Shown: positions 5,803 through 12,661 of the stretch, one piece after another
Numbering within the stretch: the first letter of the stretch is position 1
Layout: the number at the start of each line of letters is the position of its first letter
DNA from: Cognatazoarcus halotolerans
GTDB lineage: Bacteria; Pseudomonadota; Gammaproteobacteria; Burkholderiales; Rhodocyclaceae
Length of the DNA stretch: 64,000 nt
Reading direction: 5' to 3'
NCBI RefSeq assembly: GCF_009800965.1
Contig: NZ_WUAF01000003.1
Span: 248,001 to 312,000 of the forward strand
The notes under the pieces: model-generated
What the model was told of the DNA's origin: nothing
The model's database searches: none
Seen by the model: the letters and a program-made list of their open reading frames with translations, nothing else
Made by a program: the position numbers and the translations under genes

Positions 5803-7161
5803 ATGGATGACAAGAGAAAGCGGGCAAAACAGTTCTACAACGCGCTCGATTTCGACAAGCCAATCAATTTCGGGCTCGACCGGCTCGTGTCGGCTGAAAG
5901 GGCCCTGCCCGAAAAGATTTATGTGCCTTGCATCCATGGCGGTAGCGAGCGCGATCCGGTTGAAGAGCTTGCCAACCAGATTGATTTCTCGTTGAGCGCC
6001 GGCTCCTACCTTTTCTCCGGCAATCGTGGTACCGGCAAGACGACTGAACTGCTCCGCCTCGCGAGGCGCCTGGAGGAGTTGAGTTGCGAAGTCTTCTATG
6101 TAGACATGGCGGACTATCTCCCGCTTACCCAGCGCATCGAAGTCACGGATTTTCTGATCAGCGTGATAGGCGCATTCTCCGAAAAGGCCGCTGAGCGTAT
6201 CGGTGAGAACCCCGCAGGAGCGGGGTATCTCGAGCGGGTCTTGCAATTTCTGCAGGCGGAGGTGTCCTTCGATGAAATCAAGCTGCCAGCCGGCCCCATC
6301 GAATTCAAGGCATCGCTCAACCAGAACCCCAGCTTCAAGCGAGAGCTTCAGAAGAAAACCCGCGGTGTCGTCGAACGGCTGGTCGAACAGGCGCGCGCCT
6401 ATGTACTGGATGTAGTCGAGGCACTGCGGCAGAAGCGTAGCGATCCTGACCTGAAGATCGTCCTGATTGTCGACTCGATAGAGCGGCTACGCGGCGTTGG
6501 CGACAGTCAGGATGTCCGGGAGATTTTCAAGAGCGCCGAGACGCTGTTCGCCTCGCACGCCGACAAGTTGCGTTTTTCCGGGCTGAATACGATCTACACC
6601 GTGCCGCCATATCTGTCGGCGCTGGCGGGCGGGCTGGGCGCCTATTATGCGGGCGGCCGGATTTACACCTTGCCAAGTCTGCACATCTACACCTGTTGTC
6701 CAGAGCCAGGCAAAGCCCCAGCGACGGACGAGACCGGCATCGCGAAAATGCGCGACATCGTGGATCGACGCTTCGCCTTCTGGCGGGATTTCTTTACCGA
6801 GGCGGCACTTGCAAGGCTTGCCCAGAGTTCGGGCGGGGATCTCCGCGACTACTTCCGGATGCTTCGGTTGGCGCTCGCTCGCGCGCCGCAGTCAGCGTTG
6901 CCGCTTTCCGGCGGCATCGTGGAAGATGCCGAAAACGCGGTGCGAAACGACATGCTACCCATTGCCGACGACGACCGCGTCTGGCTTCAGGAAATCAGTC
7001 GCACCCACAAGCCAGCCCTCCCGAGTCTGGACAAGCTGCCCGACTTTGCGCGCCTGCAACAAGGCAAGTACGTGCTGAACTATCGCAACGGTGAGGACTG
7101 GTACGACCTTCATCCACTGCTGCGGATGGAACTGGACGGAAATGGCGGACGCCGGACTTGA
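5803..7161 (+). CDS. P-loop ATPase (AAA/STAND-like) of a two-gene accessory unit
   Basis: A 452-residue cytoplasmic ATPase. Walker A GNRGTGKTT is at residues 73-81 and a hydrophobic Walker B ending in Asp (IVLIVDSIE) at 219-227. The helical stretch GGDLRDYFRMLRLAL at about 344-358 resembles the sensor-2/lid helix of Orc/Cdc6-like and STAND NTPases. The C-terminus (YVLNYRNGEDWYDLHPLLR, about 423-441) looks like a small winged-helix segment. It overlaps the next gene by 20 bp, so the two are made together. G+C is visibly lower than in ilvA: the 60-base line at 6061 has 33 G/C, the line at 4201 has 44. The specific function is unknown. A signal-transducing or immune ATPase controlling the TPR partner is inference. 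Confidence 0.72.
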   Translation: MDDKRKRAKQFYNALDFDKPINFGLDRLVSAERALPEKIYVPCIHGGSERDPVEELANQIDFSLSAGSYLFSGNRGTGKTTELLRLARRLEELSCEVFYVDMADYLPLTQRIEVTDFLISVIGAFSEKAAERIGENPAGAGYLERVLQFLQAEVSFDEIKLPAGPIEFKASLNQNPSFKRELQKKTRGVVERLVEQARAYVLDVVEALRQKRSDPDLKIVLIVDSIERLRGVGDSQDVREIFKSAETLFASHADKLRFSGLNTIYTVPPYLSALAGGLGAYYAGGRIYTLPSLHIYTCCPEPGKAPATDETGIAKMRDIVDRRFAFWRDFFTEAALARLAQSSGGDLRDYFRMLRLALARAPQSALPLSGGIVEDAENAVRNDMLPIADDDRVWLQEISRTHKPALPSLDKLPDFARLQQGKYVLNYRNGEDWYDLHPLLRMELDGNGGRRT

Positions 7162-8650
7162 CGATCTTTGGCAGAAGCTTCGCCCTCATCTCGAGTGGGC
7201 AGAGGGTTTCAGCCTTGTTCTCTTGTTCGGCCACAACCCGAAGGCGGCGGATGCCCTGCGAGTCAGGTTGGAGGGTATTTGTAGCCTTCGTACCCAACGC
7301 CTGCAGAAGCCCGACCCGCGGCTCGATACCGGGGATCTTCTGAAGAGCATACTCAAAGCCCGCCCGAGACCTGGATCGGGGCCGCTCTGGGTCGATCTGA
7401 CACCGGTTGCGCAAAGGGACGAGAAAGGCGTGGGCGATCTTCTGATGCGACTCAATGAGCGTCGCTTCCTGCTCGAATCCGAGGTCCGCCTACCGCTCGT
7501 GCTTATATTGCCCGGCGAGTTCCGGGCGCGCTTTCATGCGCTGGCGCCCGACCTATGGGCTGTTCGAAGTTTTTCCGACGCGTTGCCCCTGTTTGATCAA
7601 GATGCCTCTGCGGGCTCCCTTGGGGTATCCCGGGGGGCGCGAGATGAGGTGCCGAGCCTTGCCATATCCCGGATTCCATCGGCTTCCGAACGTGAGTGGC
7701 AACGCCTGTTTGCGGCGTCGTCTGCCGGCGAAGGGCTTGATCTAGCGGACGCGGCGCAGGCATTTGAGGCCGCTATCGAACGCGGTGCGATTTCGGACGC
7801 CAAGGTGATTGCAGCGCAGGCGCTGGCAATTGCACGGGTGCGTGCGCGCAAGACTTCGGGCAAAGGCCCACAGGTGCTGCGCGACCTGTCTATTGCTCTC
7901 GATAACGTGGGCAGGGTGGCGCGTGATCTCGGGGATCTGTCGGCGGCGCGGGTGGCCTTCGAGGAGAGCCTGTCGCTGCGCCGGCAGCTGCGCGAAGCCC
8001 TTGGCGAGGGCCCACAGGTGCTGCGCGACCTGTCTATTGCTCTCGATAACGTGGGCGGGGTGGCGGGAGATCTCGGGGATCTGTCGGCGGCGCGGGTGGC
8101 CTTCGAGGAGAGCCTGTCGCTGCGCCGGCAGCTGCGCGAAGCCCTTGGCGAGGGCCCACAGGTGCTGCGCGACCTGTCTGTTTCGCTCGATAACGTGGGC
8201 GGGGTGGCGCGTGATCTCGGGGATCTGTCGGCGGCGCGGGTGGCCTTCGAGGAGAGCCTGTCGCTGCGCCGGCAGCTGCGCGAAGCCCTTGGCGAGGGCC
8301 CACAGGTGCTGCGCGACCTGTCTGTTTCGCTCAATAACGTGGGCAGGGTGGCGCGTGATCTCGGGGATCTGTCGGCGGCGCGGGTGGCCTTCGAGGAGAG
8401 CCTGTCCCTTAGCCGGCAGCTGCGCGAAGCCCTTGGCGAGGGCCCACAGGTGCTGCGCGACCTGTCTGTTTCGCTCGATAACGTGGGCGGGGTGGCGGGA
8501 GATCTCGGGGATCTGTCGGCGGCGCGGGTGGCCTTCGAGGAAAGCCTGTCTCTGCGCCGGCAGTTGGCGGAGTCGTTTCCGGACATTCCTAGGCTTTTGC
8601 GCGACCTTGAGCGCACCACGGCACTTGTCCGGAAACTGGACGAAACTTGA
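7142..8650 (+). CDS. TPR-repeat protein, partner of the P-loop ATPase
   Basis: About 502 residues. Residues 1-180 form an alpha/beta domain I cannot name, with strands such as GFSLVLLFGHN, GPLWVDLTPVA and RLPLVLILPGEF followed by APDLWAVRSF. Residues about 185-240 are helical. Residues 242-481 are five near-identical 48-residue repeats, each with helix A (VLRDLSVSLDNVGGVARDLG) and helix B (SAARVAFEESLSLRRQLREA), a tetratricopeptide-like hairpin. A degenerate sixth start follows before the C-terminus. ATG 7142 lies inside the 3' end of the ATPase gene after GGA; an earlier start would run into unrelated sequence. The repeats probably bind a protein or peptide, and the N-terminal domain may be the effector or adaptor. 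No catalytic motif was found. Confidence 0.68.
   Translation: MADAGLDDLWQKLRPHLEWAEGFSLVLLFGHNPKAADALRVRLEGICSLRTQRLQKPDPRLDTGDLLKSILKARPRPGSGPLWVDLTPVAQRDEKGVGDLLMRLNERRFLLESEVRLPLVLILPGEFRARFHALAPDLWAVRSFSDALPLFDQDASAGSLGVSRGARDEVPSLAISRIPSASEREWQRLFAASSAGEGLDLADAAQAFEAAIERGAISDAKVIAAQALAIARVRARKTSGKGPQVLRDLSIALDNVGRVARDLGDLSAARVAFEESLSLRRQLREALGEGPQVLRDLSIALDNVGGVAGDLGDLSAARVAFEESLSLRRQLREALGEGPQVLRDLSVSLDNVGGVARDLGDLSAARVAFEESLSLRRQLREALGEGPQVLRDLSVSLNNVGRVARDLGDLSAARVAFEESLSLSRQLREALGEGPQVLRDLSVSLDNVGGVAGDLGDLSAARVAFEESLSLRRQLAESFPDIPRLLRDLERTTALVRKLDET
7865..8584 (+). repeat. Five tandem 144-bp coding repeats
   Basis: Units begin with GGCCCACAGGTGCTGCGCG at 7865, 8009, 8153, 8297 and 8441, exactly 144 bp (48 codons) apart. 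Units 1-4 differ from each other at only a few bases; the fifth diverges in its last 25 bp. Variable codons sit at the same few positions in every unit (IA or VS, D or N, G or R, G or R) in mosaic combinations, pointing to recent duplication with gene conversion or unequal crossover. Confidence 0.95.
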
Positions 8651-9164: not shown

Positions 9165-11288
9165 TCAGGCAGCGTGGCCGGTACCGCTCTGAGGACCGGC
9201 GTGAGGTGGAATGTCGTAGCCGGCGAGGTGCTGGTCGAGATCGGGACCGTCCAGCACGCGGCCATCCATGAACTGATCGGGGCCGAGGCATAGCGGTCGA
9301 GGCGTTGCGTCGAGCGTCCAGTCCTGCGCATGGGCGCCCTCGGGCTTCCAGTCTTCGGGCGGTTGGGCATCGCCGAAGGCGGCCGCCTGGCGGTAGATGT
9401 CGCTGCGGTAGACGTCTGCGCACAGGCGCGCGACGTTGCGCGGCATGCGTACCTGCCCCCAGCGCACCATCTGGCCGAGCAGCCAGGCGGCATGCGAGTG
9501 CCACGGAAAGTTGGCCGCTCCGGCGTGGAAGCACTGGTGGGCATCGATGCTGCCGCCGGCCCGCGTGCCGCCGAGCGAGCGCATCAGCAGGTCCTGCGAT
9601 ACATTGACATAGCGGCCATGGCTCAGTATCTCGCAGGCGCTGGCGCGGTTGTCTTCCTTGTCGAGCCACCAGCAGGCGTCGAGCAAGGCCTTGATCATTG
9701 CGCGGTGGGTGTTGGGATGGGCGTCGGCCCAGGCACGGGTCACGCCGAGCACCTTCTCGGGGTGGTTGTTCCAGATCTGCCAGGTCGACACCAGCGGCTT
9801 GCCGATGCCGCCTTCGGCGGCCACGCTGTTCCATGGCTCGCCAACGCAAAAGCCGTCAAGCACGCCGGCGGCGAGGTAACCCACCATCTGCGATGGCGGC
9901 ACGACGGTGAGCTGCACGTCGCGGTCGGGGTCGATACCGCTGCAGGCCAGCCAGTAGCGAAGCAGGTAGTTGTGACTGGAGTGCGGCGCGACGATGGCGA
10001 ACACCATGCGCCGCTGGCGGGCAGCCCTGCGACGCTCGACCTCGCGGCGCAGGGCATGGGCAGCGCTGAGGGCATCGACCGCTTGTTCCGCTGCCTCGTC
10101 TTCAGCAAGCCCCAGGCGCGACCACAACTCACTCGAGACGGTGATCGCATTGCCATTGCGCCCAAGGCTCATGGCGGTCACCAGTGGGGTGGCCGAGGCA
10201 TCGAGCGCCGCCGCGATCGGCATTGCCGCGAGCATCTGGGCGCCGTCGAGCAGGCCCAGCGAGACCTTGTCCTGGATGTTGCTCCACGAGGATTCGCGCG
10301 AGAGCCTGACGTTCAGCCCGGCGGCGTCGAAGAAGCCTTGTTCGAGCGCGATCGCCAGCGGCGCGCAGTCGATCAGCGGGATGAAACCCAGCGAGATATC
10401 GGCTTTTTCCAGCGTCTTGCCGTTACGTTCCGGCTGTGAGGCAACCCAGTCCGCCATGAAGATGACCGAGTCTTCGGCAGGCGGGATCTCGGCCGTCGTG
10501 GGAGGAGTGGGTTCGGGCAGGTAGCGACCGAGACGATCGCCGAGAACCTCGAGCAGTCGGCCTGCCTCCTCGCTGCGTTCGAGGTCGAGGCGCGCCCGCG
10601 GACGCAGCAGGTTGACGTCGATCTGGGAACTCACGACCACGCCGTCCTCAAGGTCGAGGCAGAGTATGCGATCCGACATCAGCACCGCCTGTTCGACGTC
10701 GTCGGTGGCGAACAGCATGGTGCGGGTCATGCGCGCCTGCAGGTCGAGCATCAGGTCGAGGTTCTGGCGCTTGAGGATCTCGTCGAGTCCGTCGAACAGA
10801 TGGTCGAGGCACACCAGCGGCGCATCACTGACCAGCAGCCGCGTCAGTTCGACCCGTGCCAGGGCGTGCTTCGAAAGTGTCGAAAGCCGTTGCGCACCGA
10901 GGTCTTCGATGCCGGTGAGACGCAGATTGTGGTTGACCCAGGCCCGTGCTTCCGCCCGGCCGACCCGGCGGCCGAGACTCGCTGCGGCAGCGCGCTGAAG
11001 ATAGGTGGTGACACGCTGCAGGAGAAAGCGCTCGGGCTTTTGCCTGACCAGTACGACCCGCCGGTTGGCCGCGCAGAGTTCGCGTCCGTCAAGCAGCACG
11101 CCACCCAGGCGCGCGGGCCGTGCAGCAACCAGCGCTTCGAGCACGGCCGAGGCAAGCCCCGGCTGGCGGGCCATGATCCCGAGCGCAGTGCCTTCGGGCA
11201 GGTGAAGGTTGAAATCCTCGAGGCGCCAGTGCCCACCCTGGCCATCGGACAGGTCGAGGGTGAGGCGGGTGGATTCGAGCTGGGGCAA
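9165..11288 (-). CDS. Degenerate ABC-ATPase / NrtA-like nitrate-binding fusion
   Basis: A 707-residue protein. Residues 1-255 follow the fold order of an NrtD/NrtC-type ABC ATPase but every catalytic motif is altered. The P-loop position reads LGIMARQPGLA (no GKS/T), the signature LSTLSKHAL (no LSGGQ), Walker B VCLDHLFDG (His for the catalytic Glu), and the switch region FATDDVEQA (Asp for His). From residue about 297 the sequence matches NrtA/CmpA/NasS-type nitrate-binding proteins (ADISLGFIPLIDCAPLAIA, NHPEKVLGVTRAWADAHPNT). No signal peptide precedes it, so binding is probably cytoplasmic. No permease gene is adjacent, so a nitrate sensor is more likely than a transporter. The start is TTG 11288, with AGGA about 8 bp upstream. 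Confidence 0.75.
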   Translation of the reverse strand: MPQLESTRLTLDLSDGQGGHWRLEDFNLHLPEGTALGIMARQPGLASAVLEALVAARPARLGGVLLDGRELCAANRRVVLVRQKPERFLLQRVTTYLQRAAAASLGRRVGRAEARAWVNHNLRLTGIEDLGAQRLSTLSKHALARVELTRLLVSDAPLVCLDHLFDGLDEILKRQNLDLMLDLQARMTRTMLFATDDVEQAVLMSDRILCLDLEDGVVVSSQIDVNLLRPRARLDLERSEEAGRLLEVLGDRLGRYLPEPTPPTTAEIPPAEDSVIFMADWVASQPERNGKTLEKADISLGFIPLIDCAPLAIALEQGFFDAAGLNVRLSRESSWSNIQDKVSLGLLDGAQMLAAMPIAAALDASATPLVTAMSLGRNGNAITVSSELWSRLGLAEDEAAEQAVDALSAAHALRREVERRRAARQRRMVFAIVAPHSSHNYLLRYWLACSGIDPDRDVQLTVVPPSQMVGYLAAGVLDGFCVGEPWNSVAAEGGIGKPLVSTWQIWNNHPEKVLGVTRAWADAHPNTHRAMIKALLDACWWLDKEDNRASACEILSHGRYVNVSQDLLMRSLGGTRAGGSIDAHQCFHAGAANFPWHSHAAWLLGQMVRWGQVRMPRNVARLCADVYRSDIYRQAAAFGDAQPPEDWKPEGAHAQDWTLDATPRPLCLGPDQFMDGRVLDGPDLDQHLAGYDIPPHAGPQSGTGHAA

Positions 11289-11401: not shown

Positions 11402-12661
11402 CTAGCCGTAACGCCGTGCCGCCTCCACCGCCAGCCCCGCGCCGATGCTGCCGTAGAGATCGCCTTCGACGGATCGGGCCGCCGGCAGTTCCGCGGCGAT
11501 GCGCGCGCGCAGCTGGGCGACGCCGCTTGCCCCGCCGGTGAAGTAGAGGGTATCGACCTGGTCCCTGCGCAGCCCGGTCTGGTCGAGCAGTTCACCGACG
11601 CATGCGCCAACCTGTTCGACCAGCGCGCGGGTGGCCTGGGTGAAGTCGTCGTCGCCGATCGATACCGTGAGTCCGGCTTCGAGCCGATCCAGCGCCAGCT
11701 TTGCTGCGGGTGCCTGCGACAGATCGATCTTGGCCTGCTCCACCCGCAGCGCCAGCCAGTGTCCTTCGCGCTGGCCGATTAGTTTCGAGAGGCGGTCGAG
11801 CGGCGCGCGTTCGGCTGCGTCGCGGTAGATATGCTGCAGGTCGGCCCAGACCTGCCGTGTGTAGGCGAAGTTGATGGTGTGCCAGGTGGCGAGCTGGAAG
11901 AAGATGCTCGCGGGCAGCTGCGCACCGCTTTTCATGAGACCGCGGTAGCCGAGCAGCGGCATCACGCATTCCAGGCTCAGGGCGCGGTCGAAATCGGTGC
12001 CGCCGATATGGATGCCGGCGTTGCCGAGCAGGTCTTCGTGGCGCTCGAGGCCGCGGGCGCGTTCGGGCGAGAGTCGTACGATCGAAAAGTCTGCGGTGCC
12101 GCCACCGATATCGGCGATCAGCACGAGCTCCTCGTTCGACAGGGAGCTTTCGTAGTGCAGCGCGGCGCCGATCGGCTCGAACTGGAAGCTGACGTCGCGG
12201 AAGCCCACCTGCCGGGCGATCGCCTCTAGGGTGTCCTGGGCCTTGCGGTCGGCGGCGGCGTCATCATCGACGAAATGCACCGGGCGGCCGAACACCGCCT
12301 GGTCGAAGCTGCGGCCGGCCTGTGCTTCGGCGCGCAGCTTGAGCTCGCCGATGAAGCTGGCGAGGAGGTCGCTGAAACGCAGGGCGCGGCCATGGACCTC
12401 GGTCTGGCCGTCGATCAGGCTGCTGCCGAGCAGGCTTTTGAGGGCGCGCATCAAGCGGCCTTCGTAGCCTTCCAGGTATTCATCCAGCGCGGCGCGGCCG
12501 AAGCAGGTGGTGTCTTCATCGGCGTTGAAGAACACCGCCGAGGGCAGGGTGGGCTTGCCGTCTTCGAGTGGCAACAGGGCGGGTGCGCCCGGGCGAAGCC
12601 AGCCGACCGTGGAGTTGGAGGTGCCGAAGTCTATGCCGCAGGCGCGGGCAGGCTGTTGCAT
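11402..12661 (-). CDS. Hsp70-family chaperone-like protein (YegD type)
   Basis: A 419-residue actin/Hsp70-fold ATPase. The phosphate-1 loop is CGIDFGTSNSTVGW at residues 8-21, phosphate-2 is LIADIGGGTADFS near 185, and the adenosine motif is YFTGGASGVAQL near 375. It ends shortly after the nucleotide-binding domain, so it lacks the beta-sandwich substrate domain of DnaK, as in YegD. It lies 113 bp upstream of the nitrate-binding fusion on the same strand, so co-transcription is possible. It is divergent from the pyrophosphatase-like gene. Its clients are unknown. Confidence 0.88.
   Translation of the reverse strand: MQQPARACGIDFGTSNSTVGWLRPGAPALLPLEDGKPTLPSAVFFNADEDTTCFGRAALDEYLEGYEGRLMRALKSLLGSSLIDGQTEVHGRALRFSDLLASFIGELKLRAEAQAGRSFDQAVFGRPVHFVDDDAAADRKAQDTLEAIARQVGFRDVSFQFEPIGAALHYESSLSNEELVLIADIGGGTADFSIVRLSPERARGLERHEDLLGNAGIHIGGTDFDRALSLECVMPLLGYRGLMKSGAQLPASIFFQLATWHTINFAYTRQVWADLQHIYRDAAERAPLDRLSKLIGQREGHWLALRVEQAKIDLSQAPAAKLALDRLEAGLTVSIGDDDFTQATRALVEQVGACVGELLDQTGLRRDQVDTLYFTGGASGVAQLRARIAAELPAARSVEGDLYGSIGAGLAVEAARRYG

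What the first reader, a model, noticed from the sequence alone, without database searches (positions are those of the whole stretch)
9165..11288. Catalytically dead ABC domain fused to a nitrate-binding domain
The order (ABC-like then NrtA-like) copies NrtC. Yet the P-loop, signature, Walker B Glu and switch His are all replaced, there is no signal peptide, and no permease gene is adjacent. A soluble two-domain protein of this kind may be a nitrate or related-anion sensor analogous to NasS, with the dead ATPase acting as a docking or dimerisation module.
Basis: partly seen in the sequence, partly recalled or inferred. Interest (0 to 1): 0.65.

Follow-up and report, generated by a model that had tools for sequence, protein, structure and literature searches.

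The report
Nitrate sensor with dead ATPase half
A soluble bacterial protein joins a worn-out transporter motor to a nitrate-sensing domain; the motor half looks dead yet is still kept by selection, so it seems to be a transport subunit recycled into a nitrate sensor, which has not been tested at the bench here.

Summary
ORF 9165-11288(-) encodes 707 aa: an ABC-ATPase fold (res. 1-258) joined to an NrtA/NrtC-CRD-type domain (291-699), no export signal, no adjacent permease. Walker A Lys, signature Gly-Gly, catalytic Glu and switch His are all replaced.

It is not a one-off. Nine distinct dead fusions were found in one family (three genera): Glu and His lost in 9 of 9; dN/dS of the dead half 0.11-0.35, below the linker in each of six pairs. 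Eight relatives from other families keep every ATPase motif; 6 of 8 directly follow nrtB and 8 of 8 have nirB close by. The parent is thus an NrtC-like transport ATPase carrying a NasS-type sensor.

A simple NasS-NasT role is not: 4 of 9 dead-fusion genomes show no NasT, and 4 others keep a NasS-like protein beside NasT. Two genomes show no NrtA or NrtB, so a transport role fails there. Best reading: free-standing cytosolic nitrate/nitrite sensor on a non-catalytic ABC scaffold. Partner unknown; nitrate binding untested.

The parts
9165..11288 (-). gene of the dead-ABC / NasS-type fusion, 707 aa, TTG start
   Evidence: eight full-length orthologues (four, all eight)
10569..11288 (-). ABC-ATPase-like half, residues 1-240, catalytically degenerate
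   Evidence: ABC_tran; NrtC NBD Z 28.9; motifs
11145..11171 (-). Walker A remnant ARQPGLASA (Lys lost)
10854..10877 (-). signature remnant LSKHALAR (Gly-Gly lost)
10794..10814 (-). Walker B remnant VCLDHLF (Asp kept, catalytic Glu -> His)
10695..10712 (-). switch (H-loop) remnant FATDDV (His -> Asp)
10419..10568 (-). linker, residues 241-290, partly disordered (pLDDT below 50 at 261-283 and 285-289), fastest evolving
9369..10418 (-). NasS / NrtC-CRD-type substrate-binding domain, residues 291-640
   Evidence: NMT1_2; CmpC CRD Z 48.9
9753..10286 (-). span holding the five predicted nitrate ligands Trp335, Asn380, His439, Gly483, Lys512
   Evidence: ligands of NrtA from a passage of PMC13204499
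9168..9368 (-). C-terminal tail, residues 641-707, aligned in part to the C-terminal extension of NrtA and the CmpC CRD

Best explanation
The gene is a derived NrtC-like protein. In relatives from other families an nrtD-type nitrate-transport ATPase and a NasS-type cytosolic nitrate sensor are fused in one protein inside nitrate-assimilation operons. In the family of the window the fused gene stands outside such operons, its ATPase half has lost the residues for nucleotide hydrolysis and most of the permease-docking (Q-loop) sequence, while the sensor half stayed tightly conserved. The product is a soluble, cytosolic nitrate/nitrite sensor: anion binding should close the clamp and change its contact with a partner, and the dead ABC half serves as the scaffold, dimer or contact surface. 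Shown here: anatomy, loss of motifs, kinship, retained selection, retained ligand residues, no detected NrtA or NrtB in two host genomes. Inferred: nitrate binding, the partner (an ANTAR antiterminator such as NasR or NasT, or a PII-type protein, or none of these) and the gene targets.
For: Glu and His lost in 9 of 9 dead fusions, all motifs intact in 8 of 8 live ones. 6 of 8 live fusions directly follow nrtB (L206, L207, L208, L210/L064, L211, L100); all 8 have NirB (810-976 bits, cut-off 578) next to them or, in L065 and L208, one gene away. Two live fusions tested pass TIGR01184 (338 and 344 bits, cut-off 291.8), the window protein does not (59.6). L213 and L086 show the unfused order NrtD then NasS-like. 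SBD tree: dead fusions a clade 95/98 within an 89/91 group with 7 of 8 live fusions. Best SBD relative beside nasT and not beside nrtB in 61 of 70 non-fusion loci; it scores above the NrtA-slot protein in 19 of 21 loci that have both. dN/dS of the dead half 0.11-0.35, SBD 0.09-0.21, linker 0.29-0.94 over six dead pairs, the dead half below the linker in 6 of 6; in the one live pair the ABC half (0.08) is more constrained than the SBD (0.15), the reverse of the dead ones. Ligand residues 4 of 5 identical to NrtA, the fifth as in NasS-like rows and both CRDs. G001 and G002 carry the fusion; beyond it no NrtA-type hit at 1e-60 or stronger than 6e-13, and no NrtB at 1e-20. All 9 dead-fusion genomes have NirB matches (8 over cut-off, G305 in two contig-edge pieces). 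The CmpC CRD is reported to sense nitrate (review passage, PMC13249358).
Against: None of the nine window genes tried, apart from the fusion itself, matches in any of the 8 other dead-fusion loci, so no partner is named by context. NasT does not track with the fusion, and ANTAR proteins are common anyway (62 of 101 relatives). Genus mates G003 (completeness 80) and G004 (93) show no fusion. The AU test does not reject the dead SBD grouping with periplasmic NrtA at 0.05 (p 0.078) nor all fusions with cyanobacterial CRDs (p 0.18), so 'NasS-type' rests on similarity, topology and lack of export signal. In the ABC tree all fusions as one clade are rejected (p 0.00015), so the exact parent of the dead half is unsettled. 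The linker is not a neutral standard and dS reaches 1.2 in the most distant dead pair. The window row keeps a Q-loop Gln. No binding data exist.
Confidence: 0.5

Rival explanations
1. Regulatory NBD subunit of an ABC nitrate importer: the dead half replaces one NrtD in the NrtB/NrtD transporter coded elsewhere, and the sensor half inhibits transport, as the CRD of cyanobacterial NrtC/CmpC does.
For: The own genome has an intact NrtB (236.6 bits, cut-off 209) and NrtD (335.7, cut-off 291.8) with NrtA and NasT on C22. Domain order and folds match NrtC/CmpC. Importers with two different NBD chains, NrtBCD and CmpBCD, are solved.
Against: G001 (completeness 100) and G002 (89) show no NrtA beyond the fusion and no NrtB at 1e-20. 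The Q-loop/docking stretch is the least conserved part of the dead ABC half (pairwise identity 0.27, against 0.88 in live fusions). The gene is not linked to a transporter in the stretches read of 9 loci.
Confidence: 0.15
2. NasS in the strict sense: it holds NasT (or the ANTAR part of NasR) inactive until nitrate or nitrite binds.
For: SBD closest to NasS-slot proteins. All 9 dead-fusion genomes have at least one ANTAR protein; NasR (NIT+ANTAR) confirmed in G000, G001, G005 and G216. In G000 the only other protein over the NMT1_2 cut-off has a twin-arginine-type leader (motif recalled), so the fusion is the only cytosolic candidate for its NasT. NasS-NasT dissociates on nitrate or nitrite (PMC3795266, passages).
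Against: No NasT-type frame in 4 of 9; NasR has its own nitrate domain; G029, G129, G305 and G318 have a NasS-like protein beside NasT (G129's runs off a contig end). The fusion is not beside nasT in any of the 9 dead loci read. Relatives such as G239 have NasT with an exported NrtA and no fusion, so NasT can occur without a cytosolic NasS of this type. All 16 genomes, with or without fusion, have an ANTAR protein.
Confidence: 0.2
3. A sensor or carrier for another anion (nitrite only, bicarbonate, formate, chlorate) rather than nitrate.
For: The fold family includes bicarbonate-binding CmpA (2i48, Z 45.2); specificity was not tested.
Against: The NrtA Lys269 equivalent is Lys512 in 9 of 9 dead rows; CmpA holds bicarbonate with a Glu (Glu271 in a review passage; that it stands at the Lys269 place is recalled). 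NirB matches occur in all 9 host genomes.
Confidence: 0.1
4. Decaying pseudogene or relic with no present function.
For: ATPase motifs lost; presence patchy within the genus (4 of 6 genomes).
Against: Nine open frames of 692-723 aa without a stop (G129's frame runs longer upstream and was cut), dN/dS of the dead half 0.11-0.35, SBD identity 0.84-0.90 in the five closest pairs.
Confidence: 0.05

Closest known systems
Cyanobacterial NrtC / CmpC (NBD + C-terminal regulatory domain)
   Same: Domain order, both folds, cytosolic CRD with nitrate-type site
   Different: ATPase motifs lost, no nrtA/nrtB linkage, TIGR01184 cut-off not reached; Q-loop stretch diverged
   Same: Same two domains, 38-43% identity, SBD group 89/91 with 7 of 8
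   Different: They keep all ATPase motifs (8 of 8); 6 of 8 directly follow nrtB, L065 has no nrtB in its stretch and L209 ends at a contig edge; 8 of 8 have nirB close by
NasS of NasS-NasT systems
   Same: Cytosolic NrtA-like domain, best sequence match, same ligand residues (His in 28 of 32 NasS-like rows)
   Different: Carries an ABC-like half; not beside nasT; host may lack NasT
Periplasmic NrtA (2g29) and exported NrtA types
   Same: Fold (Z 48.4) and ligand residues
   Different: No signal peptide; the operon NrtA rows form a separate 100/100 branch, though grouping with it is not rejected at 0.05 (p 0.078)

Membership tests
NrtC (ATPase subunit with regulatory domain) | ABC domain followed by NrtA-like domain | tested here: met
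NrtC (ATPase subunit with regulatory domain) | working ATPase motifs (Walker A Lys, LSGG, Glu, His) | tested here: not met
NrtC (ATPase subunit with regulatory domain) | TIGR01184 ntrCD above its cut-off 291.8 | tested here: not met
   59.6 bits; two live fusions 338 and 344
NrtC (ATPase subunit with regulatory domain) | encoded with NrtA and NrtB | tested here: not met
   two host genomes show neither NrtA nor NrtB
NasS | NrtA-like domain without export signal | tested here: met
NasS | nitrate-coordinating residues conserved | tested here: met
   Trp, His, Gly, Lys identical to NrtA; Asn in place of Gln, as in 31 of 32 NasS-like rows
NasS | single-domain protein encoded beside nasT | tested here: not met
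NasS | binds NasT and releases it on nitrate or nitrite | not testable with these tools
   needs purified proteins
NrtA (exported nitrate-binding protein) | signal peptide or lipobox | tested here: not met
   (hydropathy only; no signal-peptide program was run)
ABC ATPase | ABC fold | tested here: met
ABC ATPase | catalytic Glu and switch His | tested here: not met
   lost in 9 of 9

The most novel reading that the evidence does not exclude
A free-standing pseudo-ATPase/nitrate-sensor protein, made from a transporter ATPase, that reports cytosolic nitrate or nitrite without an ABC transporter and without NasT: a third way, beside NasS-NasT and NIT-domain sensors, to feed nitrate status into nitrate assimilation, with the dead ABC half as the output surface.
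Probability: 0.35. Interest if true: 0.68.

Novelty: new variant of a known kind. Interest (0 to 1): 0.5.

Why it matters
Cyanobacterial work shows that the NrtC/CmpC regulatory domain controls its own transporter. The series found here (unfused NrtD + NasS, live fusion in the operon, partly eroded fusion, fully dead fusion away from the operon) would show such a regulator outliving the transporter it came from, with the motor kept as a scaffold. It gives a ready set of natural intermediates to test what a pseudo-ATPase does in signalling. It also warns annotators: such genes may be called nitrate-transport ATP-binding proteins although two host genomes show no matching transporter.

Tried and rejected
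NasT partnership by co-occurrence: rejected as a general rule. Conserved neighbours: of nine window genes (the fusion among them) searched against the 8 other dead loci and 7 live or split loci at 1e-5, only the fusion matched; some of these loci are short contigs (5.6 kb for G005). RNA leader: no Rfam match at gathering score in the window; the 132 nt around the start fold no better than shuffles (z -0.50). Origin from cyanobacterial NrtC: the SBD data do not reject it (p 0.18); the ABC data reject fusions + NrtC/CmpC as one clade (p 9.5e-5), but also reject all fusions alone (p 1.5e-4), so repeated fusion or exchange of parts is likely and the parent is unsettled. Pseudogene: disfavoured. 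PADLOC hits of neighbours are weak. Literature: (held open-access library only) listed no paper whose title or shown abstract start describes a catalytically dead NrtC or an NrtD-NasS fusion; of the listed papers I saw passages of five (PMC3795266, PMC6603209, PMC5623697, PMC13249358, PMC13204499) and only listings of the rest.

Limits of the counts: the named-genome scan kept the best 80 of 134 relatives. Genome searches scored only the first candidates of a loose first look (2 or 3 per genome; up to 11), so absence there is at that depth. The NasS-slot count uses same strand, under 700 bp, NasT over 60 and NrtB over 100 bits. Tree rows (72, 38, 41, 34 rows) were picked by hand from the loci. 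Absence in G001 and G002 depends on completeness (100 and 89). The G129 frame has an unclear start and was cut at residue 166 of the open frame; three live frames were trimmed to the likely start before aligning. NasT against NasR was judged by frame length, neighbours and, for the proteins, by Pfam.

Full report
What is there. The ORF at 9165-11288 on the minus strand is open for 707 codons from a TTG. Its N-terminal half scores as an ABC transporter ATPase only weakly (27.5 bits, cut-off 25), its C-terminal half strongly as NMT1_2 (270 bits). The best solved relatives by sequence are NrtC and CmpC of cyanobacteria. A model from a 30-row alignment has mean pLDDT 88, pTM 0.64 and two confident domains with a loose linker around 261-289; it matches the NrtC nucleotide-binding domain (Z 28.9, 2.2 A over 248 residues) and the CmpC regulatory domain solved with nitrate (Z 48.9, 2.1 A over 365). 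How the two halves lie to each other is not settled: the full-length NrtC and CmpC chains superpose with rmsd over 20 A.

The ATPase is dead by its motifs. In the window protein the Walker A Lys is Ala, the signature Gly-Gly is Lys-His, the catalytic Glu is His and the switch His is Asp; a Gln stands at the aligned Q-loop column. Over nine distinct dead fusions Glu and His are lost in 9 of 9, the first signature Gly in 9 of 9 and the second in 8 of 9, the Walker A Lys in 7 of 9, the Q-loop Gln in 8 of 9; the Walker B Asp stays in 9 of 9. Two rows (G029, G129) keep a Walker A Lys and so look like an intermediate stage.

It is a family, not an accident. Full-length relatives were found in 9 of 297 genomes of the same family, in three genera: 4 of the 6 genomes of the own genus, G029 and G129 of g25, and G216, G305 and G318 of g100. 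Among 399 genomes drawn over the order only the own genome matched at 1e-155. Among 369 of the class there were 12 matches: the own genome, seven fusions, one unfused pair (G920) and three matches to the sensor half alone. Seven of the dead fusions have named records, all Rhodocyclaceae metagenome bins.

Where it came from. L206, L207, L208, L210 (= L064), L211 and L100 directly follow nrtB; L065 has no nrtB in its stretch and L209 ends at a contig edge. NirB over its cut-off stands close to all eight, downstream in seven (with one gene between in L208) and upstream, with a small gene between, in L065. A NasT-type protein lies in the stretch read of three of them (L206, L210, L211; Pfam response regulator + ANTAR), and there no separate NasS-type protein was seen. 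L213 and L086 show nrtD followed by a separate NasS-like gene. In the SBD tree the nine dead rows form a clade (95/98) inside a group (89/91) with seven of the eight live fusions; L065 falls outside, and one clade of all 17 is not rejected (p 0.18). The ABC tree is less kind: all fusions as one clade are rejected (p 0.00015), with long branches warned of. So fusion may have happened more than once.

The sensor half is NasS-like. In the 80 loci kept from the named-genome scan, 10 are fusions; in 61 of the other 70 the best SBD relative lies beside nasT and not beside nrtB, and in loci with both kinds the NasS-slot protein scores higher in 19 of 21. Since these loci were found by similarity to the query, this is a statement about nearest kin, not about frequency. 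Grouping with periplasmic NrtA is disfavoured but not rejected at 0.05 (p 0.078). The nitrate ligands of NrtA (Trp102, Gln155, His196, Gly240, Lys269; passage of PMC13204499) map to Trp335, Asn380, His439, Gly483 and Lys512, unchanged in all nine dead rows; Asn is the usual letter at the second place in NasS-like rows (31 of 32) and stands in both CRDs.

Selection. Nei-Gojobori estimates for six pairs of dead fusions give dN/dS 0.11-0.35 for the ABC half, 0.09-0.21 for the SBD and 0.29-0.94 for the linker; the ABC half lies below the linker in 6 of 6 pairs and above the SBD in 6 of 6. In the one live pair the order of constraint is the other way round (ABC 0.08, SBD 0.15). The dead half is therefore kept, but less tightly than the sensor. 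The pairs are not independent (three come from one trio) and the linker is no neutral standard. The least conserved part of the dead ABC half is the Q-loop/permease-docking stretch (mean identity 0.27 against 0.88 in live fusions).

Context in the genomes. The own genome has NasT - NrtA with a twin-arginine-type leader (recalled motif) - NrtB - NrtD on contig C22 and a NasR (NIT+ANTAR) at C22:230397. NasR was also confirmed in G001, G005 and G216. NasT-type frames occur in G000, G029, G129, G305 and G318 but not in G001, G002, G005 and G216; in G029, G129, G305 and G318 a NasS-like protein without evident leader lies beside NasT. NirB matches are present in all nine (8 over cut-off, G305 in two contig-edge pieces); the two genus mates without the fusion have none over cut-off, one of them a contig-edge fragment. 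That agrees with a link to nitrite/nitrate assimilation, but six genomes of one genus, two of them incomplete, are few. A NarK-type porter over its cut-off lies close to nirB in G000, G001, G216 and G305, so G001 has another nitrate route. G001 and G002 show no NrtA beyond the fusion (no further hit at 1e-60, none stronger than 6e-13) and no NrtB at 1e-20.

How it most likely works. A review passage reports that nitrate binding to the CmpC regulatory domain frees it from the ATPase domains (PMC13249358, passages), and NasS releases NasT on nitrate or nitrite (PMC3795266, passages). Both use a cytosolic NrtA-like clamp as a switch. I infer the same switch here, with the dead ABC half as the contact or dimer surface, and output on nitrate assimilation rather than on transport. 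The partner is not shown. A NasT partnership cannot be general; a role as a transporter subunit cannot be general either. Confidence 0.5 for the sensor reading as stated.

Verdict. New variant of a known kind (NrtC/NasS), interest 0.5.

Noticed in passing
window 5803-8650 (+): A weak AAA/ATPase-like ORF overlaps by 71 bp a TPR protein with 4.9 copies of a 144-bp repeat (96% matches, 7865-8563); such near-identical repeats beside an NTPase may mark a conflict or signalling system.
   Followed up: partly
L206:8020-10167, L207:5562-7742, L208:5861-8125, L211:8087-10372, L100:7377-9551, L064:9989-12070: Live NrtC-like fusions in nrtA-nrtB-fusion-nirB operons, three of them (L206, L064/L210, L211) with NasT and no separate NasS in the stretch read: one protein may serve as transport ATPase and as nitrate sensor.
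   Followed up: partly
L044:9199-10599 and L146, L148, L152, L153: NrtA proteins with twin-arginine-type leaders (motif recalled) branch inside the cytosolic NasS-like group, so export and cytosolic sensing seem to have been swapped within this lineage.
   Followed up: partly
window 11402-12661 (-): Hsp70 relative (nearest NCBIfam model NF008673, 275.6 bits, under its cut-off 331) just upstream on the same strand, 113 bp away; not found beside the other dead fusions.
   Followed up: partly
L172:12004-18309, L171:10607-16612, L050:14116-18043: Response-regulator-like genes and a large ORF lie beside the nitrate transporter genes in three family members; the one scanned (L171:10607-12181) has receiver, PAS and SpoIIE phosphatase domains.
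   Followed up: no
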